A stretch of 64,000 bases of DNA. Source: Sphingomonas sp. (GTDB taxonomy: Bacteria; Pseudomonadota; Alphaproteobacteria; Sphingomonadales; Sphingomonadaceae). The notes under the pieces were generated by a model. The model did no database searches and was not told where the DNA came from. It was given only the letters and a program-made list of their open reading frames with translations. Below, piece by piece: positions 27,668 through 44,555 of this stretch. Within the stretch, counting starts at the first letter, position 1; each line of letters starts with the position of its first letter. The stretch covers positions 372,001 through 436,000 of the forward strand of contig NZ_JAFKLZ010000002.1 of the NCBI RefSeq assembly GCF_017304615.1, read 5' to 3'. The translations under genes and the position numbers were made by a program.

Positions 27668-28870
27668 ATGAATTTTGAAGCAGTCGCGTCGTCGTTGCGC
27701 GAGGACGCAAGGGCAAGTGTGACTGAAATCGACCTCGACGCGAGTGCAACGACGGCGCCGACGCCTGGCGTCATTGCAGCGGTAGTTGCTGCCATGTCAG
27801 AAGGTTACGGTAATCCGTCGAGCGGCCATGGCCGCGGTGACGCAGCCCGTCGGATCCTGGCTGATGCTCGCGATGCAGTGAACGAACTGATTAGCGGAGC
27901 GAGCGAGGACGGTGTCACATTCACCTCGGGCTGCACTGAGGCGAATAACCTTGTTTTGCGTAGTTTTGCAGGCGCTCCCGCGCGGATTATCACTACTGCG
28001 GTCGAGCACCCGTCGGTGATCGCGACGGTCAACGACATTCGTGCGACCGGCGGCCTTGTGACCATCCTTGGCGTTGACGGCGATGGGGGCATTGATCTGA
28101 CGGAACTGCGCACCGCGGTGAATGCGGCAAGCGGACCATGTTTGGTGTCGATCCAGCTGGCGAATTCCGAAACTGGCATTCTGCAAGACGCTCGTGCGAT
28201 CGCAGCGATCGTCTCAGGGTCGGCCGATTGCTTCTTTCATGCCGACGCCGCCCAGGCTGTCGGAAAGATCGACCTCACTGTAGGTCGTGGTGTTGGGCCA
28301 GATGTCGTGACTTTGTCGGGGCACAAGCTCCACGCACCGATGGGGATTGGCGCGGTTGTCGTGGCCGCTGACAGCCACATTCCGCTGCAAGCGCTATTGC
28401 GCGGCGGCGAACAGGAGCATGGATTGCGCGCAGGCACCGAGGCTGTGCCAGCGATCGCCGGCCTCGCGGCTGCATGCCAAGAATGGGCGGGCATGCGCGG
28501 CGAGCGACAGCGCACTCTGACCGAAATGCAAAGCGCGCTTGAAGCGCGGCTCGCCGCGATTGACGGCGCCATCATCAACGGTGCGGCTTCACCCCGCCTT
28601 CCCAATGTGACGAACGTGCGGTTTGCTGGGATCGATGCGATGGCGCTGGTCGCCAACCTTGATGCGCGCGGCATATATGTGTCGCAAGGATCGGCGTGCT
28701 CGAGCCGCCGGCCCGAACCGTCGCCCGTGTTGGTTGCGATGGGCTTGAGCGAAGGCGAGGCCTTCTCGGCGATCCGTCTGTCGTTGTCGGTCCATAATCA
28801 GGCGAGCGATGTTGATCTGGCAGCCAGAGCCATCGCTGAGATCGTGGCACAGATGCGAGGCGGGCTGTGA
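27668..28870 (+). CDS. sspA: Cysteine desulfurase of the DNA phosphorothioation system, SspA
   Basis: A 400-residue fold-type I PLP enzyme. The PLP Lys is about residue 219 in SGHKLHAPMG and the catalytic Cys about residue 344 in GSACSSRRPEPSP; TTAVEHPSV and FHADAAQAVG bind PLP. It supplies persulfide sulfur for DNA backbone modification, the role of SspA/DndA. The ATG at 27668, preceded by GGGAG, matches the usual N terminus; the open frame to 27449 is not protein-like. Because SspB, C and D homologues follow with overlapping starts, this is not the housekeeping IscS. Confidence 0.88.
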   Translation: MNFEAVASSLREDARASVTEIDLDASATTAPTPGVIAAVVAAMSEGYGNPSSGHGRGDAARRILADARDAVNELISGASEDGVTFTSGCTEANNLVLRSFAGAPARIITTAVEHPSVIATVNDIRATGGLVTILGVDGDGGIDLTELRTAVNAASGPCLVSIQLANSETGILQDARAIAAIVSGSADCFFHADAAQAVGKIDLTVGRGVGPDVVTLSGHKLHAPMGIGAVVVAADSHIPLQALLRGGEQEHGLRAGTEAVPAIAGLAAACQEWAGMRGERQRTLTEMQSALEARLAAIDGAIINGAASPRLPNVTNVRFAGIDAMALVANLDARGIYVSQGSACSSRRPEPSPVLVAMGLSEGEAFSAIRLSLSVHNQASDVDLAARAIAEIVAQMRGGL

Positions 28871-29754
28871 CGATCGCCCTGCAGCGCTACGCGTACGGCG
28901 GCCATTACACCTTTCCGGTGCGGTATGGTTGGCTACCGAAGGGCATCAACCGACTGGTCGAAACTGGCGGCTTCTCGGCCTCAACCGATGTGGCCGATGC
29001 GCTCGGACTTGGCTCGAAGATGGTGGACTCGCTTGGCTTCTGGCTTCGCGCCATGGGTTTGAGTGTCGAAGACGCCGACACCAAGACGCGCGGTGCATCC
29101 GAAATTGCCCACCTGATTGCCGAACGCGATCGGTTCTGTGAGCTGCCTGGCACATGGTGGTTCCTGCACCTGGCCTTGGCGCGGACACCTGGCACCGTGT
29201 GGTCGTGGTTTTTCAATGTCTATGCTGATCGCATTTTCGATCGAAATGGCTGCATCGACGCATTTATCGAGCATACCCGCGCGCGTGCGATCCGGGCGGC
29301 GTCGCCGCAGATGGCGCAAAAGGACGTGGCCTGTCTGCTGGCGGCGTACGGCAGTCGTCCGGGAGTCGACTATGTTGATCCCGACGATCTCGGCGCGTGC
29401 CCGTTGCGCGAGCTCGGCTTGATATATCGCCACGCGCATGTTCAGCGCTTCGAGCGCACCCGTCTTCCCGCGGGCGTGCCCCCCGAAGCGTTACTTGCGT
29501 GCGTGTCGGCGCTGGTCGAGGATAGTGGTCGCAGTGCTTTCTCGCTGCGTGAGCTCGCAACGATTGCACATGGGCCAGGGAGAATATTCTGCGCGGGGTT
29601 AGACGCCTTGGAGACGATGGTCGCAAACGCCGCGGCCGCCTCACCGCACGCGCAGCTCGACTCGCTCGCCGGCGAACGCATGCTCATAGTCGAACCGCAA
29701 CCGATGACCGCGTGGATGAGCGATCTGTACGAGCGCCTCGAGGCCAGCGCGTGA
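28867..29754 (+). CDS. sspB: DUF4007 protein, SspB-like
   Basis: A 295-residue protein opening YAYGGHYTFPVRYGWLPKG, typical of the DUF4007 domain; that and its position between sspA and the SspC-like ATPase identify it as SspB. In characterised SspABCD systems SspB nicks DNA at the target motif so that sulfur can be placed on one strand. No classical nuclease motif can be read by eye. The GTG start overlaps the sspA stop (GTGA) and its stop overlaps the next GTG in the same manner. Confidence 0.82.
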   Translation: MTIALQRYAYGGHYTFPVRYGWLPKGINRLVETGGFSASTDVADALGLGSKMVDSLGFWLRAMGLSVEDADTKTRGASEIAHLIAERDRFCELPGTWWFLHLALARTPGTVWSWFFNVYADRIFDRNGCIDAFIEHTRARAIRAASPQMAQKDVACLLAAYGSRPGVDYVDPDDLGACPLRELGLIYRHAHVQRFERTRLPAGVPPEALLACVSALVEDSGRSAFSLRELATIAHGPGRIFCAGLDALETMVANAAAASPHAQLDSLAGERMLIVEPQPMTAWMSDLYERLEASA

Positions 29755-32700
29755 CGGCATTGAGCGCCTTTTTCCGGTCGATGAGCTTGGTCGAGGATCT
29801 GCCCCATCCCCACCGGTTTCTGCATTATCATCCGACGCGGCGGGCCCTGCCAATCGTGGCTCAAGTGCTTCGCCCTGGTGCGGCGACAATGGTGATCGCG
29901 CCTTACGGCAGCGGCAAGAGCCTGGCGGCGGGCGTTGGCGGATTGTTCGTCGACAATGCCGACGAACATGCCGTGTCGCTAGGGCAGTTGGTAGAACGGA
30001 TCGCGCGCGTCGATCCGCCGCTCGCGGCAATGCTGGGCGAGCGGGTTGCGGCGGGCACGCGCGGCAAAGTGGTCGTGTTGTCGGGGCTGATCGGAGATCC
30101 GCTCGCGGCGATCGCCCACGCGATAGGCATGGCCCATGTTCCAAAGTCGGTTGAAGGCTTTGGCAAGGCGATGCGCGATGCTGGTTGGGATCATGTTGCG
30201 ATCATCTGGGATGAGTTCGGACGGCATCTTGAGGGTTTGATCGCCGATGGCCGGTCGAGCGAGCTCGACATCATTCAGCGATTGGCAGAGCGAGCTGCGC
30301 GCGCCGATGACCCCAGTCTCAGCCTGACCCTGCTGCTTCATCAAAATCTCCTGGCCTATGCCACCCGGCTGAACGAAACGTCGCGCAATGAATGGCGCAA
30401 GATCGAGGGGCGTTTTTCTGCGCTCCGCTTGATCGAGGACAGCCAGGAGTTCTTCGAGCTCGTCGCTGAAGTCGTGACAAGTTTGCGCGGGGCGGGATCG
30501 CGACCAGCGGCGCCCGCCGCTAGCCTTGTGCGCGCTGCGATCGAGGCCGGATGGTTTGACGGTATGGACGATGAGCAGCGCGTCAGTGCGTTGCTCAAGG
30601 GCGCAGCCCCTTTGTCTGCGGGCGCCTTGCAGGTCCTGCCAACCCTGGTCGCCCGGGTCGGACAGAATGAGCGCAGCTTATTCTCCTTCCTGCGTGAGCA
30701 GGATCTCAGCTTCCCGGCTGGGATTGAGGATGTTTACGTTGCCTTTGCCGATGCGATGCGCACCGATGTCGGTATTGGCGGCACCTACCGCCGATGGGTC
30801 GAGACCGAAAGCGCACGCTCGCGGGCAAATAGTGCGCTGAAACGCGAGCTGCTGGCGGCCGCTTGCCTGTTGCAGCTTGGCGGAAGCGGCGAACGGCGGC
30901 GGGTTTCACGTGCGGTTGTCGAACTGGCCGTAGCCAGTGATGTGAACACACGGCAAGCGATCGCGCACGCGTTCGATGAGCTGGTCTCATCGCGGCTCTT
31001 GCTGTGGCGGCAACATAATGACGACGTCGCCGTCTGGCATGGCGCTGATATCGATGTGGCCCTGCGCGTACGCGAAGAACGCGATCGCCGCTCAGGTGAC
31101 TTTGGACTGCGCGATTTCCTCAATCAGCGCTTTCCCGCGCCGCATGTGCGCGCGCCTGGCCACAACGCCGATTTCGGGGTCAATCGCTTCCTTGAGGGAC
31201 GTTATCTGTTGCCTGCAGACATGGCGGCGCCGATTGGGCTCGACGTCAGTACGAGCGGCGTCGTCGGCTATTTGCTGGCGGAAGATCGTGCGGACATCGA
31301 ACGCGCGCGCAAGGCCGCTGCGCAGTCCGATGAAGCGCGTGTCGTGCTGGTGGTTCCGGACCGGCCGCTCGATATCACCGGCGCAGCGCTCGAGCTGGTC
31401 GCAATTGAAGCGTTGAGCAAGGACGCCGATTTCCTGGCATCGGATCCGATGATCCCGACCGAGATCGACGAACTGCACTCGGTGGCGTTCGAGCAGCTCG
31501 CGCGGATGATGCGCGTGCTGCTTGATCCAAGTGGGAGCCATGCAAGCTGGTTCAGCGCAGGTGAGAAGTTGCGGGTCACGGCCGAGCGACCAGCTTCGGT
31601 GTCAGCCTCGCGCCTGCTCGGCGAATGGTATGCGCAAACGCCGCGGATCGCCAATGAGCAGCTGATGCGCAGCACCGCGTCGCGCACGATGCAGACAGCG
31701 CGAGTTCGCGTCGTGAGCTCCATTCTTGAGCGTAGCGATCAGCCGACGCTCGGCTATGAAGACAGTGACGGGAGCGCCGAAGCGTCGATCTATCGCACTG
31801 TGGTCGAACGCACGGGACTGCGACGCGCGAGTGAAGCCCGGTTTGCCGACCCTGATCAGGTCGATGACGCTGGGCTCAAGGAAGTGTGGCTGCAGATCGC
31901 TGGCTTTTTCCGTCAGCCGAGCCAATCGCGGCAACCAGCCTATCGCGGGCTGGCAACGTTGACCGACATGCTGGCCGCACCGCCGATCGGACTGCCCCGC
32001 GCGGTGATGCCGGTGTTGATTGCGGCTGGGTACCGACATTTTGCGCGCGCCGTCGCCCTCTACCGTGACGGTCAATATGTGCCCGACATCCTGGGCTTCC
32101 CGTTCGACCAGATGGTATCGACGCCCGAGAGCTATTGCGTGCGTGTGCTCAAGGTGACCCCTGAACTCACCGAATATCTGTCGGAAATCTGTTACGCGTT
32201 CGCCCATGAGCGGCCAGCGGCCGATGATGAATTGATCCGCAAGGCGCATGATGCGGTCCGCGGTTGGCTGTTGACCGTGACCGACGGCGCTCGCCGCTCG
32301 ACACGCTTGGGAGCGCCCGCGCGGGCGTTGCTGCGCGCGGTGGGCAATGCCAGCGATCCGATCGATCTGCTCATCCAAGATATCCCGGAAGCCTTTGGCG
32401 CGTCATCGCCAAGCGTGCGCCTGGTTGAGCGGGTTGAGCACGCGCGGCACCAGATAGACAAGCTGCGCGATGACTATGCCGATGAAGCGGTCGAGGTCAT
32501 TCGCAGCAGCTTCGAGCGCTACGCAACCGATAAGACGGCGGCTGTCGACGCGATCAAGAGTTGGGCGGGCTGTTTCGCGGTCGATGATCTCGACGCGGCG
32601 GCATCGCTGCGCATCGTCGACCGGTCGGTGGTGCGCAAGGCGTTGGAGACCGCCAATGGTCGCTTCTCGGAGAAGTCGCTGGCCAATGCGCTGAGCTCAA

Positions 32701-32942
32701 TTCTGCTGCAGCGTAGTCTCGATAAATGGGACGATCGAACCGCACCGCAATTTCGGACAGCACTCCGCGAGGCGCGCGAGCGGGTCGAAGCGGCCGCGCT
32801 TGATACCGATCGCCCGCGCGCTGCGCTGAGGCCTATCATCGAAGCAAAATTGGGCGAGCTTACCGGAATGCTTGCTCGAATCGATGAGAGCAAGGACAGC
32901 AGTGGCGGGGATAGTGTGAAGATCGTGGGAGGGGTGCGGTGA
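29751..32942 (+). CDS. sspC: Large P-loop ATPase, SspC-like
   Basis: A 1063-residue protein with Walker A APYGSGKS near residues 50-57 and a Walker B-like VAIIWDEFG near 149-156, then LLLHQNLLAYATRLN as a possible sensor region. The remaining 800 residues are helical without a recognised motif. SspC is the ATPase of the single-stranded phosphorothioation module, thought to act with SspB and SspD. Size and position between sspB and sspD support the call. The start is GTG in a GTGA overlap. Confidence 0.8.
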   Translation: MTALSAFFRSMSLVEDLPHPHRFLHYHPTRRALPIVAQVLRPGAATMVIAPYGSGKSLAAGVGGLFVDNADEHAVSLGQLVERIARVDPPLAAMLGERVAAGTRGKVVVLSGLIGDPLAAIAHAIGMAHVPKSVEGFGKAMRDAGWDHVAIIWDEFGRHLEGLIADGRSSELDIIQRLAERAARADDPSLSLTLLLHQNLLAYATRLNETSRNEWRKIEGRFSALRLIEDSQEFFELVAEVVTSLRGAGSRPAAPAASLVRAAIEAGWFDGMDDEQRVSALLKGAAPLSAGALQVLPTLVARVGQNERSLFSFLREQDLSFPAGIEDVYVAFADAMRTDVGIGGTYRRWVETESARSRANSALKRELLAAACLLQLGGSGERRRVSRAVVELAVASDVNTRQAIAHAFDELVSSRLLLWRQHNDDVAVWHGADIDVALRVREERDRRSGDFGLRDFLNQRFPAPHVRAPGHNADFGVNRFLEGRYLLPADMAAPIGLDVSTSGVVGYLLAEDRADIERARKAAAQSDEARVVLVVPDRPLDITGAALELVAIEALSKDADFLASDPMIPTEIDELHSVAFEQLARMMRVLLDPSGSHASWFSAGEKLRVTAERPASVSASRLLGEWYAQTPRIANEQLMRSTASRTMQTARVRVVSSILERSDQPTLGYEDSDGSAEASIYRTVVERTGLRRASEARFADPDQVDDAGLKEVWLQIAGFFRQPSQSRQPAYRGLATLTDMLAAPPIGLPRAVMPVLIAAGYRHFARAVALYRDGQYVPDILGFPFDQMVSTPESYCVRVLKVTPELTEYLSEICYAFAHERPAADDELIRKAHDAVRGWLLTVTDGARRSTRLGAPARALLRAVGNASDPIDLLIQDIPEAFGASSPSVRLVERVEHARHQIDKLRDDYADEAVEVIRSSFERYATDKTAAVDAIKSWAGCFAVDDLDAAASLRIVDRSVVRKALETANGRFSEKSLANALSSILLQRSLDKWDDRTAPQFRTALREARERVEAAALDTDRPRAALRPIIEAKLGELTGMLARIDESKDSSGGDSVKIVGGVR

Positions 32943-33763
32943 GCGTAACCATTACAAGTGTCGACGACGCTGTCCGCGATAAGAGTGCTCGTCACATTGT
33001 GCCGATCTCTGGCGGCAAGGATTCTTCAGCGCTGGCGGTGTATCTGCGTCAGCGTAATCCCGAGGTGAAGTTTGAATATGTTTTCTCGGATACAGGCGTA
33101 GAACTGCCCGAAACCTATGATTTCCTCGACCGGCTCGAGAATGTGCTCGGGATCGAAGTCCACCGCGTGTCGGCAATGGACCTGTTTGACGTCGCGGAAA
33201 AGCCGGGGCGGACGGCCTTCGACGTCGCGCTATATGAACATTTCGCCGGGTTTCTGCCCAGCCCGCGTGCACGCTGGTGCACACGGATCATGAAGATCGC
33301 GCCGTTCGAGCGGTTTGTCGGCACGGATCGCGCGTATTCGTACATTGGTATCCGCGCCGACGAGAATCGTGCGGGCTATCTTGGCACTGGCACGGCGGGT
33401 GCCAAGCCGGTGGTGATTTCCGAACAGCCCAACATCACGCCTGTCTATCCCTATCGTGACGATTGTATCGACGTGGCTGAGGTCGGTCGCATTCTCGAGA
33501 GCGCCGGGCTCAGGTTGCCGGACTATTATGAGTGGCGCAGTCGCTCGGGCTGCTACTTCTGCTTCTATCAGCAGATTGGCGAATGGCAGGGCCTGAAGGA
33601 GCGTCACCCGACGCTGTACGAGCGTGCCAAAGCCTATGAGACGATGAAGGGCGGCCGGAAGTACACTTGGGTCGATGGGCGTTCGCTCGACGATGTCGAG
33701 CGCATGCCGCGGCGCGCGATCAAGGCCAAGGCCGATGACGGCTGTGCGGTGTGTCATCTGTGA
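32939..33763 (+). CDS. sspD: PAPS-reductase-like ATP pyrophosphatase, SspD
   Basis: A 274-residue PP-loop protein with SGGKDSSALAVYL near residues 24-36 and Cys residues at RWCTRIMK, SGCYFCFYQ and the terminal CAVCHL, which could bind an Fe-S cluster as in DndC. It resembles phosphoadenosine-phosphosulfate reductase but, by context, is the phosphorothioation ATP pyrophosphatase SspD (DndC homologue) that activates DNA for sulfur transfer. The GTG start overlaps sspC, and the stop overlaps the next GTG. Confidence 0.88.
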   Translation: MSVTITSVDDAVRDKSARHIVPISGGKDSSALAVYLRQRNPEVKFEYVFSDTGVELPETYDFLDRLENVLGIEVHRVSAMDLFDVAEKPGRTAFDVALYEHFAGFLPSPRARWCTRIMKIAPFERFVGTDRAYSYIGIRADENRAGYLGTGTAGAKPVVISEQPNITPVYPYRDDCIDVAEVGRILESAGLRLPDYYEWRSRSGCYFCFYQQIGEWQGLKERHPTLYERAKAYETMKGGRKYTWVDGRSLDDVERMPRRAIKAKADDGCAVCHL

Positions 33764-35571
33764 GTGCCTGCCAGTCGAGTTCGCTGGTTTCATTTCTGCG
33801 GATCTTTGGTCCGTCGGCTGAAACCGACGCGCTGAGCGATGAGAATGTCCGCAAGGCGCTGGCAGAGTTCGGGGTGCAGCCAATCGTCACGCCAGCGCCG
33901 CAGCTCGAGAAGCTCAAGACGGCCTTATGCGGCGAGACGCCGAGTAACGTCATCCTGACTGGTACCGCTGGCGACGGTAAGACCTACCATATCCGGCAGC
34001 TGCTCCTCGGCGAGCTCAATATGGCGCCGGAATTGTGGCCAGGCGACGCACCCGTGCTCGAAGTGTCGTTGCCAAGCGGAATTCCGCTACGCGTCATTCG
34101 CGACCTGAGTGAGCTCGAAGACGATGAGAAGGATGCAGAGCTCGCGGCGATCATCGCCTGCCTCAAGGGCAAACGAACCGACGTCCGCTATTTGATTGCC
34201 GCGAACGACGGACAATTGCTGCGCTATTTTCGCGACAGCACGACGGTTGGTGCGGGCGCGATCCACGCCGAGCTCGCGCGGATGTTGCGGTCCGAGGTCG
34301 GTAAGAGTGCGCTCGACCTGGTGCTGCTCAATTTAAGCCGCAGTTGGAGCGGCGAGACCGTCGACAAGATATTCGATGCAGTGATCGATCACCCTGATTG
34401 GGCCAGCTCGTGCGATGGATGCCCGGGAACTGGAGTGGCCAACCCTTGCCCTATCCGTCTCAACCAGAGCATTTTGCGCGGCGACGACGGTGCAGGACTG
34501 AATTTCCGCACCCGAATCAAGGATGCGTTGCGCGTCGGTGCGGCCAACGACAGCCATATCCCTATTCGCTATCTGATCATGCTTGCGGTCAATATTCTGT
34601 TGGGCGACCGGCAAGTGGCCGACGATCCTCTACTCGATTGCGATCGCGCCAAACAGCGTGCGGCCAAGGGCAATTACGAACTATGCAACCCGTATGACAA
34701 TGCGCTCGGGCTCAACATGCCCAAGCGCCAGCGCGACGCCAATGTCGTGTTCAGCCAGCTGGCCTCGCTCGGTCTCGGCGAAGAGACCAACAATCTTCTC
34801 GACGAGGCACTGACCAAAGGCGAACCCAAGGCCCTGGCCGAGGAAATCTTCGCGACCGAGAAAATGTATGGCGAGCGGCTCTTCGCGCCTGCGCACCATG
34901 CTTATTATGTGACTGCGGATCGCAGCAAGGCGGACGAGTTTCGCGGCAGCATTGCGACGCAGCGTCGCCGCGCGTTTTTCCGGATGTCGGCGTCTCATGA
35001 GGGCATGGCGTCGCCCTGGCGGTTCACGGTGCTGCATCATGCTGGCACCTATCTTGATGTTATCGCGGCGCTGACCGATGCGGACGCCAACAAGACCTTC
35101 CTCGACCAGATCACGCGGCGGCTGATCAAGGGTCTCAACCGCGCCTATCTCGGCATGATGGCCGAGGAGACCGAGAAATTGTGGCTCGCTGGCACGATCG
35201 GTCGCACCGACGACACGGTAGGTCGGATAGCGACCGTCGACGCGATCGCGCGGGCAACGCGCGCGCAGAGCATCAAGCTGGACATGGACCGCGGCAAGCG
35301 CCGCCCGGTGCTCCTGGTGCGCAGCAAGTCGCTCGACGAGCCCATTGAGCCGCTCGAGTTGCGGCCGTTGTTGTTCGAGTACCTCCTGCGCGTCGACGAG
35401 GGCAGCTTGCCATCGAGTTTCTCCCGCCAGTGCCAACAGGAGGTGCGCCAGTTTGCGCTGATTACGAACGCTGCCTTTGGCGACGAGGGCGATGAAGGCG
35501 ATGTGAGCAGCGTCTTTGTGCTGTCCCTGAGCGCGACAGGGAATGTCGACGCAAAGACGTTAGAGGTGTGA
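33760..35571 (+). CDS. sspF: Phosphorothioation-linked restriction ATPase, SspF/DptF-like
   Basis: A 603-residue protein with an N-terminal P-loop GTAGDGKT at about residues 68-75 and a Cys cluster in CDGCPGTGVANPCPIRLN that could bind zinc. Position immediately after sspD, and the following two genes, fit the sspFGH cassette that has been described downstream of sspBCD; it also corresponds in size and position to DptF of Dnd systems. I choose the GTG at 33760, which overlaps the sspD stop. The individual identity is contextual rather than motif-based. Confidence 0.68.
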   Translation: MSACQSSSLVSFLRIFGPSAETDALSDENVRKALAEFGVQPIVTPAPQLEKLKTALCGETPSNVILTGTAGDGKTYHIRQLLLGELNMAPELWPGDAPVLEVSLPSGIPLRVIRDLSELEDDEKDAELAAIIACLKGKRTDVRYLIAANDGQLLRYFRDSTTVGAGAIHAELARMLRSEVGKSALDLVLLNLSRSWSGETVDKIFDAVIDHPDWASSCDGCPGTGVANPCPIRLNQSILRGDDGAGLNFRTRIKDALRVGAANDSHIPIRYLIMLAVNILLGDRQVADDPLLDCDRAKQRAAKGNYELCNPYDNALGLNMPKRQRDANVVFSQLASLGLGEETNNLLDEALTKGEPKALAEEIFATEKMYGERLFAPAHHAYYVTADRSKADEFRGSIATQRRRAFFRMSASHEGMASPWRFTVLHHAGTYLDVIAALTDADANKTFLDQITRRLIKGLNRAYLGMMAEETEKLWLAGTIGRTDDTVGRIATVDAIARATRAQSIKLDMDRGKRRPVLLVRSKSLDEPIEPLELRPLLFEYLLRVDEGSLPSSFSRQCQQEVRQFALITNAAFGDEGDEGDVSSVFVLSLSATGNVDAKTLEV

Positions 35572-37196
35572 CGATGGCAGAGGTCGAACGCTCGCCCCTG
35601 TTAGTCGCGAACAGTCTGGAGCCACCGCGCAATTTGCAGGTGTCGCAGATCGGTCTGTGGTGCGAGATCCCGATCTGGGGATTGCTGCTCTACGATAATC
35701 AAACACCGTGGCTGACGTTGCTCGAGACGCTGCATATCTGTTTCGCGCGGGTGAGCCACAAGAAATCCGTTTTCCCGCCGGAGACCAGCGATGGCGAGCA
35801 TGAGTGGATCAATTACGAGGCGCCGTTGGCGCTTGGGTTGCGCCATTTGCTGTTCGAAGATCAGCACATCGACGAGATCGCCAGCTCCGGTACCGAGAAT
35901 GGAACGATGTGGTCGACCTGGATCGCCGAGCTCGGGGTCAAGCCGCCCGTGAACATTGCGCATTTGCGCAAGACGTTCCCGCAATTTCAGGATTTGGCCA
36001 ACGCGGTCGCCTTGCTGCGCAGCGGCCAGGTCGATGGCAATAATGGCCGGCGCCCAACGTCCCGGCATTTGCTGCCGCTCGGCCCATCAATGCTGTTTGC
36101 GGACGTGAAGGAGGTCGAGCACACGTCAGATCGACGCTTCATGCGACGCAATGGCGAGCTCATATTCCTGATGCTTAATCGGTCGTCGTTGCGCACCGAG
36201 GTCGCCAACCTGATCCAGAGCGAGCTGATCGGCGCGGACAGTCCGTGGAACCGCCTGGCGCGCAAACTGATGGGCGGGGATGCCTATGAGGATCAGCCTC
36301 GGTCGCTGAACACCGGATTTTTGCCGCTCGCCGAGCATGGGGCCTATGAGCGGCTCGCGCAAGACTGGCGGGCAATTCTGTCATTGAAGAAGATGCCGGT
36401 TGCGACCTCCCTCGCACCGCTGGCTCGACTGAGCAGCTTCAACCTTTTGCTCTACATCGTTGAGCGGGCGGTTGAAGTGACCGAAGGTCCGGGCGGCTAT
36501 GTTCCACCCTATGTGTTCGACATGGTCGGCAACACGTCGGGGAATGGGCTGCGCAAGCTGTCACAGAACCTGTTGCAGCAGCACCGACGCTTGATGCCGA
36601 GCGCAACACGCGCATTTGTCGAGGCCTATCGCCAGAGTGACGAGTGGCAGGCGATTGAAGGGACCGACCAGGCAAGTCTGACGGCCTGCAACCGGCTCCA
36701 GCAGCGTTTCTTGTGGAAGCGCGACATCGGTACCGATCCGGACGCGATGCCGAGCCCGAGCGAGCAGATCGAACTGCTGATCAATGAAGTGCAAAAGTCG
36801 CACAGTCACTCAGTGAGCGCGATGTATGTGGCGCACAGCCGGCAAATCGGGGCGATCACGGCGCGTGCGGGCGTCGGGACTTGGTATGCGCCAAATGATG
36901 AACTGATCGAAGCGCTGGTGCTCGCCAATGTTGCTGGCCCGATTGAGCTCGACGCGTTCTTGGAAAAGCTGTTCGACCGCTACCGCATCGTCATTGGCGC
37001 GCAGGAGGCAATGCGGGCGTTCGACGGCGAGCTACCCGAGGTCGACGCGACATTCCGTGAGAATGAGCGAAGTTTCGAAGATCGTTTGCGCATGCTCGGG
37101 TTTCTCGAACGCAAATCCGATGACTGCGCCTTTGTGTTCAACCCTTTCCACCCGGACACCAGCTTGACCGACGGGGATCATGATGTCGCCGCTTGA
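35568..37196 (+). CDS. sspG: Phosphorothioation-linked restriction protein, SspG/DptG-like
   Basis: A 542-residue soluble protein with no nucleotide-binding or nuclease motif that I can see. The central LLLYIVERAVEV and RFLWKRDIGTDPDAM segments and the C-terminal FLEKLFDRYRIVIGAQEAM are helical. It is called from position between the P-loop gene and the large HerA/FtsK-type gene. The GTG at 35568 overlaps the previous stop; an ATG two codons later is an alternative. Its end overlaps the next start by 17 bases. Confidence 0.6.
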   Translation: MTMAEVERSPLLVANSLEPPRNLQVSQIGLWCEIPIWGLLLYDNQTPWLTLLETLHICFARVSHKKSVFPPETSDGEHEWINYEAPLALGLRHLLFEDQHIDEIASSGTENGTMWSTWIAELGVKPPVNIAHLRKTFPQFQDLANAVALLRSGQVDGNNGRRPTSRHLLPLGPSMLFADVKEVEHTSDRRFMRRNGELIFLMLNRSSLRTEVANLIQSELIGADSPWNRLARKLMGGDAYEDQPRSLNTGFLPLAEHGAYERLAQDWRAILSLKKMPVATSLAPLARLSSFNLLLYIVERAVEVTEGPGGYVPPYVFDMVGNTSGNGLRKLSQNLLQQHRRLMPSATRAFVEAYRQSDEWQAIEGTDQASLTACNRLQQRFLWKRDIGTDPDAMPSPSEQIELLINEVQKSHSHSVSAMYVAHSRQIGAITARAGVGTWYAPNDELIEALVLANVAGPIELDAFLEKLFDRYRIVIGAQEAMRAFDGELPEVDATFRENERSFEDRLRMLGFLERKSDDCAFVFNPFHPDTSLTDGDHDVAA

Positions 37197-39327
37197 GATT
37201 ATCGGTCAGGTCACCGCGACGCGGCTCGCCGATATGCTCGAGCGTCCGGGCACACGAGCGCTGTTCGGCATCATGGGACTGAAGCCCGATGTTACCAGCG
37301 CGATCGCGCGCAAAGTGGCGGCGATCCCAGCGGTCGGGAAGATTGAGGTATTCGTCCATCCCTCGCTCAAGGACGGCAATATCGGCGCAGCCCAAGAATC
37401 GCGCAGGACGGCGACCTGGCACCGCAACCACCCTACCGAAGGTGTGCGTGCGGCGATCTTTTCGGTGCCAGCCACGCAGATCCGCGCGGTCGAGCAGAGC
37501 CTCAACCATATCACGCGGATCGACGAAAGCTGGCTGCTCGAACGTCCTGACCTTTGGGCGCAGACGGCACTTGCGCACAGTGTTGAGAGTACGCGCAAGG
37601 ACTTTGGGACGATCCTCGACGGGCTGATCTGCAGCGATCTTGTCGTCACGCCAGTGTTGCTTGCAGCCTTTTGCGCGCGCGTAGCTACGACAATGCGCGA
37701 TGGCGGGTCGATGCTCGAAAATGCCGTGCGCGAGAGCTTGCCAGCGTTGCGCTTGCCCCGAAATGCGGGTGACGCGAAATCGACAATTGCGGAATCGCCA
37801 GGCGCGGCACGCGATTTCTTTCAGCGCTTGCGCAGCGAGGCGCAGCCCTATCTCTACCGGCGTGCCCGCGACGGTGAGACGCTGGCGTCCGGTGATTTGC
37901 GGCGCAAGCTCGATGACCTCCGCCAGACGCATGCGATAAGTGCGGACAATGCCGCTCGCGTCGACGCGCTCTGCGATGATCGCAACGTGCGCGATGGTCA
38001 GTGGAGCAAGGCTCAGGCGGATGCCGCCGAGATCCCCTGGGACGACCTTAGCGCCATCTTTGTGTCGGCCAAGAAAACGGAGAAGCCGAGCTTTGGGCAA
38101 GAAACCAAGCGGCTGTTTGACGAGCAGTTCCGCGGCACGCTGACCAAGGAGGAGACCGACTTCCTCGAAGGCTTGCAAAGTGATGTCGCGAAGCCTGGCG
38201 TCAAAAAGATCGATGACTTCTTCGAGACGCATCGCGAGCGATTGAAGAGCCGGCCGCCGCTCTACCGCCGCTGGGAAAAGTTGATTTTCAAACAGTCGAT
38301 CGAGGTCGACGATCTCACCGAAGGTCTGCTGCGGCTGATTGACCGGGTCTGCTCCGAAGACGACGGCAGTGGGCGCGTTGTCTATTTGTGGCTGCGCGGT
38401 TCCGATCAGGCGAGCTTTTGGGCGAATGAAAAGCTCAAGCCGCAACTCCTGTATTTGCGCGATCGCTACCGCGGGCTGGCAACCTTATTGGCGCCTGCAA
38501 TCAAACTGGATTTCGGTCGTTGCTGGGCGACCGACTGGGAACATGAGACGATCGAGAGTGCCTCGAGCACGACCACGATCGAGTTTGAAGCCTTTCTGGT
38601 CGATGTGGCTGACCTCCCGACGCTGTCCTCAGGGAAAGTCGGCAACCCCTTCGCACGAGCGCAGATGAGCTGGCGGCCCAAACCCAATGCGGTTGGCTAT
38701 GCGCTGCAAGCGGAGCTGCGCTTCCTTAAGCCAGCAAGCGCTGTGTGCGCCTTTTTGCTGACCGGATCGGTTGCCGAAAACCGGCGCGCGCGGCGCGGCG
38801 CGAGCGGCATCGATCTCGAGGATGCAGGCTCGCTCGTCGATACGTTCGGCATGCAGGCGGGCGTGCTCGCAAACTCCGAGGATCAGCGCAATCATGTTTG
38901 CGCGCGGTTCGAGACGGCGCTGGGCGAGTTGCGCGGTGACGCTGTCATCAGCGATGCGGGTGCTGTCGCGATTGCCGCAAGCTTTGCGACGTTCCGCGAG
39001 CGTTACACCACCGCGATCAGCGCTCTGATCGACGGCGACGGCCTGGCTGATCCGGCGCTGATCGAGCAGGCCGAAGCTTACGGCCGCTTGTTCGAGACCT
39101 TGTATACCCATGCCGCGTCCGAGCCCGGCTTGCGCGAACTGGTGGCGCCACTGCTCGAGATTGGCTGCATCCAGGTTGAGGGCAAGCGTGCCGCTGCGAT
39201 CATTGCCAGTTGGCATCCGCTGCGCCTGGCAGAAATCCGCGCCAAGGCGCTCCAGATGGCAGAAGCGGCCACGGCAATCCTGACCCGCCAATGCTGCGCA
39301 GCGGACAGGCGCTGGCGACTATCTTGA
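37180..39327 (+). CDS. sspH: SspH/DptH-like protein, N-terminal part (frameshifted gene)
   Basis: The 715-residue reading frame stops at 39327 after a tail, LTRQCCAADRRWRLS, that looks out of frame. Dropping one C from the CCC at 39284-39286 changes the reading to LTANAAQRTGAGDYLESRIR and runs directly into the next frame, giving a single 1831-residue protein. This N-terminal part has no motif I recognise. In its present form the gene makes a truncated protein without the ATPase domain. It starts ATGATG at 37180, within sspG. Confidence 0.7.
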   Translation: MMSPLEIIGQVTATRLADMLERPGTRALFGIMGLKPDVTSAIARKVAAIPAVGKIEVFVHPSLKDGNIGAAQESRRTATWHRNHPTEGVRAAIFSVPATQIRAVEQSLNHITRIDESWLLERPDLWAQTALAHSVESTRKDFGTILDGLICSDLVVTPVLLAAFCARVATTMRDGGSMLENAVRESLPALRLPRNAGDAKSTIAESPGAARDFFQRLRSEAQPYLYRRARDGETLASGDLRRKLDDLRQTHAISADNAARVDALCDDRNVRDGQWSKAQADAAEIPWDDLSAIFVSAKKTEKPSFGQETKRLFDEQFRGTLTKEETDFLEGLQSDVAKPGVKKIDDFFETHRERLKSRPPLYRRWEKLIFKQSIEVDDLTEGLLRLIDRVCSEDDGSGRVVYLWLRGSDQASFWANEKLKPQLLYLRDRYRGLATLLAPAIKLDFGRCWATDWEHETIESASSTTTIEFEAFLVDVADLPTLSSGKVGNPFARAQMSWRPKPNAVGYALQAELRFLKPASAVCAFLLTGSVAENRRARRGASGIDLEDAGSLVDTFGMQAGVLANSEDQRNHVCARFETALGELRGDAVISDAGAVAIAASFATFRERYTTAISALIDGDGLADPALIEQAEAYGRLFETLYTHAASEPGLRELVAPLLEIGCIQVEGKRAAAIIASWHPLRLAEIRAKALQMAEAATAILTRQCCAADRRWRLS

Positions 39328-39400
39328 GAGCCGTATTCGTACGCTGGCGGGCAGCTATTACGCTGACATCGGCCGCGGCATCGGCACGCGCTCGACTTTA

Positions 39401-42400
39401 TTGGCCGAGACTCAGCGGGTGCTGGATTGCAGCATGCTCGAAGAAGCCGAAGGTGACGGAGTTCGCAATATCGGTGAAGAAGGCGCGCAGGAAGCGGTTG
39501 AATCGCTGCACCGCGTTAGCGCCGAATATCTCGACCTGCGGCCACACGAGCGCGCCAACTTCTCTATCGTGCTGTTGGGCGCGGAATCCGACGATATTCC
39601 CGTGTTACTGGCCAAGAGCCTAACACGGCTAGTCGATCAGAGCCCGGATGTGCGCTGCGACCTTGTCGTTACCCATGACGACCCGGCGCGGCTGCGCGAT
39701 CTATACGAAAGTCAGAACCGGCGGATGGGGGCCGATTTTGACAATAACGCGACGGGTGACCCGAGCCGGTCCTTCATGTCGCGGCTGCGGATCAGCCTCG
39801 TCGGCCCGGACCGGCTGGCGTCTTCGCAAACCGGCAAGGGTAGCGATCTTGTTTTGCTGCAGGACGTGATCGCGCGCTCGGCAACGGTCCGCTGGGTCGA
39901 GGGCGAAGCGATCAGCGACGAGGTCGACTTTGCAACGCATGTCCCAACGTCGCGATCGAAGCGCTATCCATTCAGGAAACGCAGCGTTGAGTCTGGTCTG
40001 TATCTGACCGCCACGGTTCAACCCAACGCCGTTATCGCCTGGACCAATGCCCTGCGCGATGTGCTGATGCGGCAAGTGTCCACGCGGACCGCGCCGTGGC
40101 TGCCGCTGCGCACCGCTGAATTTGTCGATACAGGCGTTGCCGATGTGCTAAAACGCGCGCACAGCCTGGCCAATTGGGTGGTGACGTTTGATCGGATCGC
40201 CGATCGTCGACTGATCGTGCAGGATGATCGTCGCATCATCCGCTATTTCTCGACGCCAAATTCAGCCCATAATGTGATTGTGTCGGCAGAGGTCAGCAGT
40301 CGCGACCTCGGCGATCGCCTGGACAATGATCTCGCCAAGCTGTTGCCGAACGCCTCGATCGAGCTGCGCACTGCGGTGTTGCAACGCCTGCATGCGACAG
40401 CGGCACGCCTGTCGGGTGCGGTGGTGATGAAGGCGGCGCAGTGGCAGAATTTCGCGCAAGAGCTGATCGGCTTGGTCCTGGCGCAACGACGTCTGGAAGG
40501 CTGGTTCGCCGAGGGCGGCGAGCATGCCGCGGCCTGGTTCTTCCTCGATGACAATCGGTCGTGGCTCGACCTGCGCGGAGAGATGGCCGATATTTTGTCG
40601 GTCGCCTTCACGAGCGACGCCGGTGGCCCGGTTATCAAGATCGCCATAGCCGAAGCAAAATATTGCACGGCTGGCACGATCAGCAAGATGCGGACGACGT
40701 CGCTTAGGCAGCTCGAGGCGACGTTCACCGAGATGCATCGACGGCTGCAACAATCGGAGACCAGTCTCGATCCGTCGATCTGGCGCAACCGCATTGCGGA
40801 CATGTTGCTCGAGCAAATGGATCCGTTCGATACGGTTGCTGGTATGAGCCAGCTCGAATGGATCGAAGCGCTGCGCCAGGAAAGCGTACGTATCGAGGTC
40901 AGCGGCCATTCGATGGTGTTCAGCTACGATCTGCCCAATGCGCCGAACGCACCGATCATGCCCGATATCGATATGCCAGCGGAAGAACGCCGGCCGCTGG
41001 CGCAATGGGTTCACGGCCAAGCTGAAGTTGTGGCCCTTCTCACCGCAATGGGTGAAGATCAGCCAGCCCCGCCACTGAACCTGCCAGCGGGCTGGCCAGG
41101 CGGCGGCGACAGCGCTGGCGATGTGGCGTCAGATGGGGGCGATGATGGCCCGCCCCCTCTCCCAACCCCGTCACCGCCCGATGCTAGAGGCGCGACAAGC
41201 GACAGCGGTACGGCCAGCCGCACCGACCCGACGCACCACCGCGATGCCATGGCAGCGGACAACCTCGATCACGACGCGGCGATGACGGGAGCGGAGCCGG
41301 TTGCCGCACCTGTCACGACTTCAGGCGGTCCGGCGGGTGATGGCAAGTCGGATCCATCAGACACTGACATTGCACTGCACGGCGACGCTGGTGCGGATGA
41401 GCCGACGGCTACGGACAAACCAGGAAACGGCACCGAAATAGTGGACGCTGGCGACGGCGCGTCCACCGCCAGCGACACGCCGACAGGTTGGCCGCCAGCG
41501 ATTGCTGATGCGCTAGCGCGGATGAGCGAAGTCGACGACCAGGCGCAGGGCGAAGCGTGGTTAAAGACGATTGTCCAGGACCTGCAGAATGCCTTGCAAG
41601 CCGAAGGCATGGACGCGCCGATCATTGAATCGCGACTGACCCCAAATAGCGGCCTCATTTATGTGGGCGCGCGGATGCTCACGGTCGGCTGGCTCGAACG
41701 GCGCCAGACCGATTTGATGACCCGGCACAGCATCGAGATCATGCGGATCACGCCGCAGCGCGGTAGTATCGCCATCGCTGTCAAACGGCCGGAACGCGCG
41801 ATCTTGCATTTGGCTGATGCGTGGCTACGGCAAGTGCCGAGCCGCAACGCCGGACCAGGCGAGCGCTTCGCACCAGTGGTCGGTGAAAAGGAAGATGACG
41901 GCAATCTGCTGTACCTTCCCTTGGCTGGCGATTTTGGCGGGCAACCGCGCGCTGCACCCCATACGTTGGTGTCGGGCAGCACGGGCAGCGGCAAGGGCAT
42001 CCTGGTCACCAATTTGATGCTCGATCTCTGTGCGCGCAACGCGCCCGATGAAGTTGAGCTCTACCTGATCGATCCAAAGCGCGGCCTCGATTACAATTGG
42101 GCGCGGCGGCTGCCGCACCTGCGGGGCGGGATCATCTCGGATCAGGCCGAAGCGGTGACCCTGTTCGAAAAGCTCGTTGTCGAGATGGAAGAGCGCGATG
42201 CGCTGATCTCGCAGAGAGGCTATCGCAACATCAACCAGTTCAACGAGCGTGTCTCACCGAGCGAGCGCCTGCCGCGCGTGGTGGTGTTCTTCGACGAAGT
42301 CGCCAACTGGATGCAGGACGAGGACTTCAAAAAGGCTGTTGAGACATTGCTCAACAAGATCGCCACGCGTGCGCGGGCGGCGGGCTTGCATCTCGTGATG

Positions 42401-42676
42401 ATTTATCAGCGTGCCGATGTGCAGGTGATGACGATGCAGCTGCGCACCAACCTCGGCAACCGGCTGATCCTGCGACTGCCAGACGAGGGCAGCTCCAAAA
42501 TCGCCCTTGGCGAGAAAGGTGCTGACCGTTTGCTCGGCAAGGGTCATTTGATCGCCAAGCTCGACAGCGACGAGAAGATCTACGCGCAAGTCCCCTTCAT
42601 CGATGAGGACGATGTCGAGGAGCTGGTCGATGCCATCGTGGCGACGTGGAAACGCGGCGCGCCCGCCCAGCAATGA
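39401..42676 (+). CDS. sspH: SspH/DptH-like protein, C-terminal part with FtsK/HerA-type ATPase
   Basis: The 1091-residue frame (TTG at 39401) continues the broken gene. It has a long Pro/Asp/Gly-rich linker around residues 540-700 and a C-terminal DNA-translocase domain: Walker A SGSTGSGKG near 858-866, Walker B RVVVFFDEVANWM near 957-969, and the FtsK-like ILRLPDEGSSKIALGEKGAD. No convincing ribosome binding site precedes any start, supporting the view that it should be read as one protein with the upstream frame. DNA translocation or end processing is inferred from the FtsK/HerA fold. Confidence 0.72.
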   Translation: MAETQRVLDCSMLEEAEGDGVRNIGEEGAQEAVESLHRVSAEYLDLRPHERANFSIVLLGAESDDIPVLLAKSLTRLVDQSPDVRCDLVVTHDDPARLRDLYESQNRRMGADFDNNATGDPSRSFMSRLRISLVGPDRLASSQTGKGSDLVLLQDVIARSATVRWVEGEAISDEVDFATHVPTSRSKRYPFRKRSVESGLYLTATVQPNAVIAWTNALRDVLMRQVSTRTAPWLPLRTAEFVDTGVADVLKRAHSLANWVVTFDRIADRRLIVQDDRRIIRYFSTPNSAHNVIVSAEVSSRDLGDRLDNDLAKLLPNASIELRTAVLQRLHATAARLSGAVVMKAAQWQNFAQELIGLVLAQRRLEGWFAEGGEHAAAWFFLDDNRSWLDLRGEMADILSVAFTSDAGGPVIKIAIAEAKYCTAGTISKMRTTSLRQLEATFTEMHRRLQQSETSLDPSIWRNRIADMLLEQMDPFDTVAGMSQLEWIEALRQESVRIEVSGHSMVFSYDLPNAPNAPIMPDIDMPAEERRPLAQWVHGQAEVVALLTAMGEDQPAPPLNLPAGWPGGGDSAGDVASDGGDDGPPPLPTPSPPDARGATSDSGTASRTDPTHHRDAMAADNLDHDAAMTGAEPVAAPVTTSGGPAGDGKSDPSDTDIALHGDAGADEPTATDKPGNGTEIVDAGDGASTASDTPTGWPPAIADALARMSEVDDQAQGEAWLKTIVQDLQNALQAEGMDAPIIESRLTPNSGLIYVGARMLTVGWLERRQTDLMTRHSIEIMRITPQRGSIAIAVKRPERAILHLADAWLRQVPSRNAGPGERFAPVVGEKEDDGNLLYLPLAGDFGGQPRAAPHTLVSGSTGSGKGILVTNLMLDLCARNAPDEVELYLIDPKRGLDYNWARRLPHLRGGIISDQAEAVTLFEKLVVEMEERDALISQRGYRNINQFNERVSPSERLPRVVVFFDEVANWMQDEDFKKAVETLLNKIATRARAAGLHLVMIYQRADVQVMTMQLRTNLGNRLILRLPDEGSSKIALGEKGADRLLGKGHLIAKLDSDEKIYAQVPFIDEDDVEELVDAIVATWKRGAPAQQ

Positions 42677-43149
42677 TCGTGGCGCATGCGGTCGGAAAGC
42701 GCTTGCGTGGCGCGCTCTATATTCACCGAAACGCGATTGCGGATTTGCCAGCGGCCGAGCGGGAATTGATCGAGCGGGCGAGCCGCTTGGTTGAGGATTT
42801 CAGCTGGAACGTCGCGCGCATTGATCCCGGTGATATCGTTGGGCTGCTCGACTATCTCGCGTTTGATAGCGATGCTTTTCCAGCGCTTGCGCGCGCCGCT
42901 CTGGTCGACGTCAGTGCGCGAAGCGTGCGCTTCACAAACTACCAAAAGTCCCCCAATCCGCTGATCCTCCACCGCAAGGAATTGCTGGTGCGCTTGGACC
43001 ATCCAAATCGGGCTGCGTGGGCAGCGCTGACGGTGGAGCTGGAGCTGCTTGGCTTGTTCCGTGATTGGAACCGGATCGGCCGCCGCGAGGTGTGGAACAC
43101 GATGCTGGCGGATGCAGGACGTGATGGGCAGGGGCAGATGATCGCATGA
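42673..43149 (+). CDS. N-terminal domain of phosphorothioation-associated methyltransferase (separate gene)
   Basis: A 158-residue protein starting MIVAHAVGKRLRGALYIHRN and containing VDVSARSVRFTNYQKSPNPL followed by ILHRKELLV. As I remember the DNA phosphorothioation-associated putative methyltransferase family, this segment is its N-terminal domain, normally fused to the Rossmann domain. Here the two are separate genes joined by a four-base ATGA overlap. The start likewise overlaps the sspH stop (ATGA). Function unknown. Confidence 0.6.
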   Translation: MIVAHAVGKRLRGALYIHRNAIADLPAAERELIERASRLVEDFSWNVARIDPGDIVGLLDYLAFDSDAFPALARAALVDVSARSVRFTNYQKSPNPLILHRKELLVRLDHPNRAAWAALTVELELLGLFRDWNRIGRREVWNTMLADAGRDGQGQMIA

Positions 43150-44555
43150 GCGCAGCGCAGCCCGTGCAGCGGCATCGTACGGCGATGGTACGCCACAGCA
43201 TGTCGCAGCCCATGTCGCTGATGGTTCAGCACGGCGTGATCCATCCCGGGGTCAGCGTGTTCGACTATGGTTGCGGTCAAGGGGACGACCTGCGCGCGCT
43301 GGCGACAGCGGGGATCAGCGCGGCAGGCTGGGATCCGCATTTCTGTCCCGAGCAGTCGCGCCACGCGGCCGATGTGGTCAATCTGGGCTTCGTGCTCAAT
43401 GTAATTGAGGATAACACCGAACGCCGCGAGGCGCTGGTCACGGCGTGGTCGCTCGCCACCCGAGCGCTGGCCGTCTCGACAATGATTGTTGGACAGGTTC
43501 CGACCGAAGGTCTGAAGCCCTACCGTGATGGCTATTTGACCAGTCGTGGCACGTTCCAGAAGTATTTCTCGGTGCCTGAGTTGCGCACACTGATCAGCGA
43601 CGCCTTGGGACGCGCGCCAGTCTCGGCCGCGCCGGGCATCTTCTTCGTGTTTCGGGCAAGCGAAGATGAGGAAGAGTTTCTCCTGCGCCGCCGGATTGGT
43701 CGCCGCTCGAGTACGCTGGCCTATCGTGCGCCGCGGCCGCGTCGAGAGGCGCAGCTGCAACCAGCCGCCAGCGAGCGGGTTGCCGAGGCGCTCGCCCATC
43801 TGGCGGAACTGACGCAGCTGCGAGGTCGGACACCAGTCGTTGAAGAAGTGTCTGCCGATGTACTCGAGCAGCTCGCCAGCGAGCGCGTCTCGCTATCACG
43901 CGCGCTCGACCTGATGTTGGATGGCCCGCTCAGTCAGGCGGCGTTTGACACCGCAGCCGCGGCGATGCGCGAGGATCTGCTGGTCCATTATGCGCTGGCG
44001 CGGATCAACCGGTCGAGCACGGCTGACCGACCAAGCCCAGCGATGGTCCGCGACGTCCGCGCGCATTTTGGGAGCCAGCGCGAAGTGATGGCTGCGGCGA
44101 TGGACTATCTGATGGCGCTGGCTGACGAGCAAAAGGTCGGCGGTGCCATGCTAGAGGCGGCGGCAAGCGGTGTCGCAGCGCGCGATCAGAAAGGTCGTTT
44201 GTTGCTCGACGCTCGCGCCAGCGAAGCGTTGCCAGGCGTATTACGCGTGTATCTCGGCTGCGCGACCTATCTCGCGGGCGAGCCCGATCCCGACGGACTG
44301 ATCCGGATTGATAGCCAGCAGCGCAGCGTCACCTATTTGCCGCTGGACGACCGCAAAGCAACATTCCCATCGTCGAGCAGCGCAACGGTCGTCGATCTCA
44401 AGCGACAGACGGTGCGCGCGCACGACACGCGACGTATGCTCATCGCGCGAAGCCAAGTTCTCGGCAAAGCAACACGCGCGCAGCGCGAAGCCGAAGCAAC
44501 GCTTCGTCGCGGGCGAGAGTTGGGGGAGGCCGTGCTGATGATCCGGACAGATTAG
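43146..44555 (+). CDS. DNA phosphorothioation-associated putative methyltransferase
   Basis: A 469-residue protein. VQRHRTAMVRHSMSQPMSLM leads into SAM motif I, VFDYGCGQGDDL, near residues 38-49, then AAGWDPHF, ADVVNLGFVLNVIED and SRGTFQKYFSVPELR, all typical of the family named from Dnd loci. No catalytic DPPY/NPPY motif of a DNA base methylase is present, so the substrate is unclear; its recurring linkage to phosphorothioation genes is the main functional clue. The C-terminal half is helical. It is the last gene of the overlapping string that starts at sspA. Confidence 0.82.
   Translation: MSAAQPVQRHRTAMVRHSMSQPMSLMVQHGVIHPGVSVFDYGCGQGDDLRALATAGISAAGWDPHFCPEQSRHAADVVNLGFVLNVIEDNTERREALVTAWSLATRALAVSTMIVGQVPTEGLKPYRDGYLTSRGTFQKYFSVPELRTLISDALGRAPVSAAPGIFFVFRASEDEEEFLLRRRIGRRSSTLAYRAPRPRREAQLQPAASERVAEALAHLAELTQLRGRTPVVEEVSADVLEQLASERVSLSRALDLMLDGPLSQAAFDTAAAAMREDLLVHYALARINRSSTADRPSPAMVRDVRAHFGSQREVMAAAMDYLMALADEQKVGGAMLEAAASGVAARDQKGRLLLDARASEALPGVLRVYLGCATYLAGEPDPDGLIRIDSQQRSVTYLPLDDRKATFPSSSSATVVDLKRQTVRAHDTRRMLIARSQVLGKATRAQREAEATLRRGRELGEAVLMIRTD

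What the first reader, a model, noticed from the sequence alone, without database searches (positions are those of the whole stretch)
27668..44555. Composite DNA phosphorothioation defence locus: SspABCD with SspFGH-type genes and a phosphorothioation-linked methyltransferase
Seen in the sequence: a cysteine desulfurase, a DUF4007 protein, a 1063-residue P-loop ATPase and a PP-loop PAPS-reductase-like protein are followed without gaps by a P-loop protein, an unrecognised 542-residue protein and an FtsK/HerA-type ATPase, then by a methyltransferase-like pair. Established knowledge: the first four are the SspABCD single-strand phosphorothioation set, and an sspFGH cassette that restricts unmodified DNA has been described for some such systems. 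No SspE (DUF262/DUF1524), DndB or DndE is visible. The combination with the methyltransferase-like pair and the GHKL-DUF3883 gene behind it may be a less-studied variant.
Basis: partly seen in the sequence, partly recalled or inferred. Interest (0 to 1): 0.85.

Follow-up and report, generated by a model that had tools for sequence, protein, structure and literature searches.

The report
DNA-sulfur phage defence with conserved methyltransferase
A mobile island carries a known kind of bacterial phage defence that tags its own DNA with sulfur, plus an unstudied methyltransferase that travels with such systems in other bacteria; the DNA-cutting gene looks broken in this copy.

Summary
Window 27668-44555 is an SspABCD-SspFGH DNA-phosphorothioation operon: every subunit matches its PADLOC family. 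It sits on a putative island of about 28 kb at a tRNA-Leu gene.

Two points were missed. First, sspH is split by a change of frame near 39285, while relatives have one intact gene of about 1800 codons. So restriction is probably off here, unless this is a sequence error. Second, the "methyltransferase-like pair" is best read as one enzyme in two genes. In most relatives the 158-residue protein (domain D) is fused to the methyltransferase. In 28 of 28 systems examined there is exactly one LHRK-bearing D copy, wherever it is encoded.

The methyltransferase (NCBIfam TIGR04096) lies near ssp or dnd genes in 13 of 13 genomes over its cut-off. It is linked to sspF in 10 of 10 rows of one SspF clade. 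It lacks amino- and C5-DNA-methyltransferase motifs; its substrate is unknown. SspH also carries a conserved D...ExK nuclease-like motif beside its FtsK motor.

The core is known; the methyltransferase-bearing form is an under-described variant. The gene behind it is Tiamat-like, probably separate.

The parts
26006..26020 (.). left copy of a 15-bp direct repeat (putative attachment site)
   Evidence: exact repeat of the 3' end of tRNA-Leu; another 14-bp match of the same stretch at 6227 shows that short repeats also occur by chance
27668..28870 (+). sspA, cysteine desulfurase (ORF open from 27449)
   Evidence: PADLOC SspA 3.2e-103; SQGSACS motif
28867..29754 (+). sspB, DUF4007
   Evidence: PADLOC SspB 3.3e-53; Pfam DUF4007 2.8e-47; solved SspB 6juf E 1.3e-13
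29751..32942 (+). sspC, P-loop ATPase (ORF open from 29712)
   Evidence: PADLOC SspC 2e-128; Walker A APYGSGKS
32939..33763 (+). sspD, PP-loop sulfurtransferase
   Evidence: PADLOC SspD 3.3e-89; SGGKDS
33751..35571 (+). sspF, P-loop ATPase
   Evidence: PADLOC SspF 3.9e-167; Walker A; weak orc1/cdc6 match 0.006, far below its cut-off
35568..37196 (+). sspG
   Evidence: PADLOC SspG 3.2e-150
37180..39327 (+). sspH, 5' part, ending at a premature stop after a change of frame near 39285
   Evidence: PADLOC SspH 1-701 of 1766; tblastn with intact relatives
39401..42676 (+). sspH, 3' part in another frame: predicted nuclease and FtsK/SpoIIIE motor
   Evidence: PADLOC SspH 740-1765; Pfam FtsK_SpoIIIE 2e-30
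40589..40660 (+). predicted D...ExK nuclease motif of SspH (D397, E418, K420 of the 3' ORF)
   Evidence: invariant in 11 of 11 SspH sequences aligned
42673..43149 (+). domain D protein (158 aa), carries LHRKE
   Evidence: TIGR04096 positions 321-471, E 6.4e-21, 74.7 bits, below the cut-off of 150 (as the longer ORF from 42646); fused to the methyltransferase in relatives
43146..44555 (+). phosphorothioation-associated putative methyltransferase (469 aa)
   Evidence: TIGR04096 357.8 bits against a cut-off of 150; class I methyltransferase fold
44609..48940 (+). neighbouring Tiamat-like (TmtA) gene, probably not part of the system
   Evidence: PADLOC TmtA 2e-50, best stretch residues 173-463
49687..51702 (-). 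DUF3363 protein of the island (relaxase label recalled)
   Evidence: Pfam DUF3363 1.2e-121
52404..53699 (-). tyrosine integrase of the island
   Evidence: Pfam Phage_integrase and related domains
53807..53893 (-). tRNA-Leu (CAG), putative insertion site; its 3' end (53807-53821) is the right repeat copy
   Evidence: ARAGORN, Rfam tRNA 53810-53893, repeat

Best explanation
A mobile-island copy of the SspABCD-SspFGH defence, of the clade whose operon also carries a dedicated methyltransferase. By homology, SspA-D put phosphorothioates (PT) on self DNA, and SspFGH is a motor-driven nuclease that attacks DNA lacking the mark. SspF is a P-loop ATPase, SspG (by inference) a recognition subunit, and SspH a predicted D...ExK nuclease fused to an FtsK translocase. 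The last two genes, D and the methyltransferase (MT), form one enzyme that I infer acts on DNA in step with PT modification: D binds or positions DNA, and MT adds a methyl group at or next to the PT site as a second part of the self mark. In this copy sspH is interrupted, so if the sequence is right the cell can mark its DNA but restricts poorly or not at all. Shown by sequence: gene identities, operon, frame change, conserved motifs, linkage of MT to PT genes, one LHRK-D per system. Inferred: biochemical activities, D and MT working together, substrate of MT, loss of restriction.
For: Family matches for all seven Ssp subunits. Active-site motifs kept in SspA, C, D and F. Same operon with one-piece SspH in Sphingomonas, another genus of the family, Methylobacterium, Falsirhodobacter and Azospirillum. 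MT near ssp (9) or dnd (4) genes in 13 of 13 genomes over the TIGR04096 cut-off. SspF tree of 18 rows: a clade of 10 (support 100/99), 9 with MT downstream of sspH and the tenth (G659) with MT just upstream of sspF; 0 of 500 label shuffles as clustered (labels set by me). Exactly one [IVL]LHRK-bearing D copy in 28 of 28 systems examined: N-terminal in 20, C-terminal in 4, separate gene in 4. The helical part of one relative (L060) weakly matches a homing-endonuclease-associated repeat (E 0.0012, below its cut-off), a hint of DNA contact. SspH D397, E418, K420 and the Walker A invariant in 11 of 11. SspFGH damages non-PT DNA in the Vibrio system tested in E. coli (PMC8092258, passages).
Against: No experiment on this MT was found. 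MT lacks the [DNS]PP[YFW] motif of adenine-N6/cytosine-N4 DNA methyltransferases and the PC[QN] motif of C5 enzymes in 20 of 20 rows. Its nearest folds are small-molecule and tRNA methyltransferases, so a DNA substrate is not shown. The homing-endonuclease repeat matched only 1 of the 3 multi-domain MT proteins scanned, not the window's own. SspFGH of Vibrio FF-93 protected with iscS-sspBCD and no MT, and several SspFGH loci here lack one (G132, G294, G804 and Tenderia, within the fetched stretches). Both halves of the split sspH are about equally conserved against the closest relative (76% and 80%), which fits a very recent break or a sequencing error as well as lost function.
Confidence: 0.6

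Rival explanations
1. Plain SspABCD-SspFGH; the methyltransferase is an unrelated cargo gene that happens to sit behind it.
For: Vibrio SspFGH was shown to protect with iscS-sspBCD alone (PMC8092258, passages); some SspFGH loci lack MT.
Against: MT is PT-linked in 13 of 13 genomes over its cut-off and linked to sspF in 10 of 10 rows of one SspF clade; in the window sspH and D overlap by ATGA, as do D and MT.
Confidence: 0.12
2. MT is an RNA or small-molecule methyltransferase, for example one that detoxifies a thiol by-product of sulfur transfer, rather than a DNA enzyme.
For: Best Foldseek hits are small-molecule enzymes (XrdM 8rdl 5.9e-5, ToxA, ChlM) with bacillithiol methyltransferase 9ri2 lower; METTL6 and Trm9 (tRNA) also rank high. 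No DNA amino- or C5-methyltransferase motif.
Against: Hits of this class are generic for class I methyltransferases and cover residues 1-173 only; the D domains, the helical middle and the linkage to PT genes point to a target tied to PT DNA, but only by inference.
Confidence: 0.25
3. The split in sspH is a sequencing or assembly error and the system is fully active.
For: Single change of frame, both halves well conserved; all other genes of the operon are open.
Against: No reads available; the assembly is near-complete (99.99%, 8 contigs), and inactivating mutations of restriction subunits are biologically plausible.
Confidence: 0.4

Closest known systems
SspABCD-SspFGH (Vibrio anguillarum FF-93; PMC8092258, outline and passages seen)
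   Same: All seven subunits by profile, sspBCD and sspFGH modules, FtsK-like C-terminus of SspH
   Different: Here a D + methyltransferase pair ends the operon, a dedicated SspA leads it, and sspH is interrupted; the passages that I read name no methyltransferase component and no nuclease within SspFGH
TIGR04096 dnd_rel_methyl, 'DNA phosphorothioation-associated putative methyltransferase' (NCBIfam)
   Same: MT scores 357.8 bits against a cut-off of 150
   Different: The N-terminal D domain of most relatives is a separate gene here; the family name states linkage, not activity
Orc/CDC6-REase-HerA/FtsK neighbourhoods (Rakesh et al. 2024, PMC10853773; section 22 and passages seen)
   Same: An Orc/CDC6-like ATPase, a nuclease and a HerA/FtsK motor; SspF has a weak orc1/cdc6 match
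   Different: The paper's text does not contain the names SspF, SspG or SspH, and the passages shown describe no TIGR04096-like enzyme (12 of 16 places shown)
MADS (methylation-associated defence system)
   Same: SspG C-terminus matches NCBIfam MAD7 (2.2e-9, far below its cut-off); SspH matches PADLOC mad8 (3.3e-19)
   Different: MADS uses DNA methylation, not PT (recalled); only partial matches here

Membership tests
SspABCD modification module | SspA, B, C and D present together by profile | tested here: met
   PADLOC E-values 3e-103, 3e-53, 2e-128, 3e-89
SspABCD modification module | catalytic motifs kept (desulfurase Cys, Walker A, PP-loop) | tested here: met
SspABCD modification module | single-strand phosphorothioate in the DNA | not testable with these tools
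   needs LC-MS/MS or iodine cleavage
SspFGH restriction module | SspF, SspG and SspH by profile, adjacent | tested here: met
SspFGH restriction module | intact SspH reading frame | tested here: not met
   two ORFs in different frames; relatives intact; a sequence error is not excluded
SspE system | SspE with DUF262 (PF03235) | tested here: not met
   no match in the whole genome
Dnd system | DndB, DndD and DndE in the operon | tested here: not met
   no DndB, DndD or DndE among PADLOC matches of the operon genes scanned; only DndA and DndC cross-matches
TIGR04096 methyltransferase | score over the curated cut-off | tested here: met
   357.8 against 150 bits
adenine-N6 / cytosine-N4 DNA methyltransferase | [DNS]PP[YFW] motif IV | tested here: not met
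   absent in the methyltransferase part of 20 of 20 rows
cytosine-C5 DNA methyltransferase | PC catalytic motif | tested here: not met
   pattern PC[QN] absent in 20 of 20 rows
Tiamat (TmtA), gene at 44609 | TmtA profile over the whole protein | tested here: inconclusive
   E 2e-50 with 3 stretches, the best only residues 173-463

The most novel reading that the evidence does not exclude
The D-methyltransferase is a dedicated second writer of the sulfur mark: it acts on phosphorothioated DNA itself, for example by methylating the backbone sulfur or a group beside it. This would give a hybrid or erasable mark that SspFGH of this clade reads, and it would be a DNA methyltransferase chemistry without the known DNA-methyltransferase motifs.
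Probability: 0.12. Interest if true: 0.85.

Novelty: new variant of a known kind. Interest (0 to 1): 0.45.

Why it matters
Phosphorothioate systems are described as sulfur marking plus a restriction arm. Here a methyltransferase for which I found no reported function is tied to both Ssp and Dnd systems and, in one SspFGH clade, is part of the operon. Knowing its substrate would show whether the sulfur mark has a second layer. The conserved D...ExK motif in SspH gives concrete residues to test for the nuclease of SspFGH.

Tried and rejected
Rejected: the GHKL gene at 44609 as part of the system (no matching ORF in 33 fetched stretches; DUF3883 not found; but see the S. naphthae remnant beside a DUF3883 gene). 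Rejected: the 158-residue protein as a chance ORF or an unrelated gene (its own gene in 4 loci of the Sphingomonas family and fused to the methyltransferase in the other 24 of 28 systems). A programmed frameshift in sspH was considered; from reading the sequence I see no obvious slippery run, and relatives have one frame.

Dropped before counts: TIGR04096 matches below the cut-off (2 of 6 matching genomes; 12 of 23). In the LHRK count I used 28 systems (20 rows of A1, L082-L085, L106-L108, L110) and left out L086 and L088 (no D), L087 and L089-L100 (not examined), the remnant L111 and plasmid hits that I did not fetch. Looser patterns (such as ILYLK, VLHCK) in 3 second D copies were not counted as LHRK.
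Full report
What is there. The window lies in a 3.34-Mb, 8-contig genome. Its nearest relative with the operon is a Sphingomonas MAG: G039, contig of 1341032 bases, the same length as the contig behind L059. On the + strand, genes in tight succession match the PADLOC families SspA, B, C, D, F, G and H. The catalytic motifs of the modification proteins are kept: desulfurase SQGSACS, Walker A of SspC, SGGKDS of SspD. The operon lies on a putative island: a 15-bp repeat at 26006 and at 53807, the latter being the 3' end of a tRNA-Leu(CAG) gene, with a tyrosine integrase and a DUF3363 protein (relaxase by recall) at the right end. One other 14-bp match of the same tRNA stretch (at 6227) shows that the repeat alone would be weak evidence. 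GC is 0.58-0.63 over 26-44 kb against 0.63-0.69 in the windows left of it.

The broken subunit. SspH is one protein of 1779-1801 residues in G039, in G224 and on the plasmid of Sphingomonas sp. gentR. Here its two parts lie in different frames. The alignment with G039 runs at 76% identity up to about 39282 and at 80% from 39287 on. The search of the genome with the 3' part found no second SspH (one other place, a short FtsK-type match of 34-36% identity) and no DUF262/SspE. If the sequence is right, the motor and the predicted nuclease are cut off from the N-terminal part, and the locus is for the moment a modification system with a disabled restriction arm. A sequence error is not excluded.

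A candidate nuclease in SspH. In 11 SspH sequences (the window's 3' ORF, L044, L045, L055, L056, L057, L065, L076, L077, L078, L081), D397, E418 and K420 (numbering of the 3' ORF) are invariant in the context AD(I/L/A)...E(A/S)K, upstream of an invariant GxTGSGK motor motif. This is the layout of a PD-(D/E)xK nuclease (recalled) fused to a translocase. The founding paper reports DNA damage by SspFGH, but the passages I read name nucleases only for SspE and SspB (PMC8092258). Rakesh et al. 2024 describe Orc/CDC6-REase-HerA/FtsK neighbourhoods that resemble this module (PMC10853773, section 22 read).

The methyltransferase pair. The 469-residue protein scores 357.8 bits against TIGR04096 (cut-off 150), positions 2-417. 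The small protein matches positions 321-471 of the same model at 74.7 bits. Direct comparison of the two is only marginal (E 0.004). The reason appears in relatives: many have one protein with a domain D, the methyltransferase, and a second D-like domain. In Methylobacterium (648 aa), Falsirhodobacter (669 aa) and Azospirillum (679 aa) the fused gene follows sspH directly. In the window, G039, G224 and Sphingomonas gentR the first D is a separate gene. In the window its start overlaps the sspH stop (AATGATC) and its stop overlaps the methyltransferase start (GCATGAGC). Across 28 systems, the motif [IVL]LHRK occurs exactly once per system: in the N-terminal D (20), in the C-terminal D of methyltransferase-D proteins (4: L043 and L048 beside dnd genes, L085 beside sspC; L084 not typed), or in the separate D protein (4). 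I read this as one working D per enzyme, so the 'pair' is one enzyme in two chains.

Linkage. TIGR04096 over the cut-off occurs in 4 of 296 genomes of the order and 11 of 398 of the phylum sample, 13 distinct genomes. All 13 have PT genes within the fetched stretches: ssp in 9 (G000, G039, G224, G331, G386, G522, G535, G625, G659; in G625 about 6 kb away) and dnd in 4 (G058, G457, G544, G560). Of 35 plasmid records with an SspF match, 8 also hold an MT match. These are all six with at least 35.8% SspF identity and 2 of the other 29. In an SspF tree of 18 rows, ten rows form a clade with support 100/99. Nine have MT downstream of sspH on the same strand; the gap ranges from overlap to about 0.9 kb, and in Microvirga one annotated gene lies between. 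The tenth (G659) has MT just upstream of sspF on the same strand. Outside the clade MT was not seen in the fetched stretches (G132, G294, G804, Tenderia; G705 lies on a 5.3-kb contig) or is near in another arrangement (G386, Methylibium, Pseudanabaena). The label, which I set by hand, needed 2 changes on the tree; 0 of 500 shuffles were as low.

Conclusion. The core is a known defence system. The methyltransferase-bearing form is a recurrent variant whose extra enzyme has a family name but no function in the papers I could search. This copy appears disabled in restriction, unless the sequence is wrong at one place.

Noticed in passing
44609-48940 +: 1443-aa protein matching PADLOC TmtA (Tiamat), best stretch residues 173-463; Pfam Sacsin 3e-5 at the N-terminus and weak NERD near the C-terminus.
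   Followed up: partly
35568-37196 and 39401-42676 +: SspG and SspH show partial matches to MAD7 and MAD8 of the methylation-associated defence system, so the two restriction modules may share parts.
   Followed up: no
L086:4986-5477, L088:4971-5477: Viral contigs encode minimal methyltransferase-only relatives (164-169 aa) of the PT-linked enzyme without domain D.
   Followed up: partly
L049, L050, L051, L052, L060, L079, L081 (C-termini of 856-918 aa MT proteins): Seven longer relatives carry an extra C-terminal domain with a conserved DQHA...GAA(C/V)DF pattern; Pfam gave no match for it in L060.
   Followed up: no
L111:8058-9023: A Sphingomonas naphthae plasmid holds only a remnant matching residues 130-467 of the methyltransferase, with no ssp genes annotated in the fetched stretch, near a DUF3883 gene: probably a decayed operon.
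   Followed up: no
L080:18383-22780: Synechocystis pSYSM has the methyltransferase, a desulfurase and DUF4007, but the SspC match is only 563 aa and lies next to LAGLIDADG and HNH endonuclease genes, so the ssp locus looks interrupted.
   Followed up: no
49687-51702 -: The island's DUF3363 gene has DNA-level partial relatives in 22 of 61 related genomes (best other full-length match 78% in G943), so this kind of element seems common in the genus.
   Followed up: no
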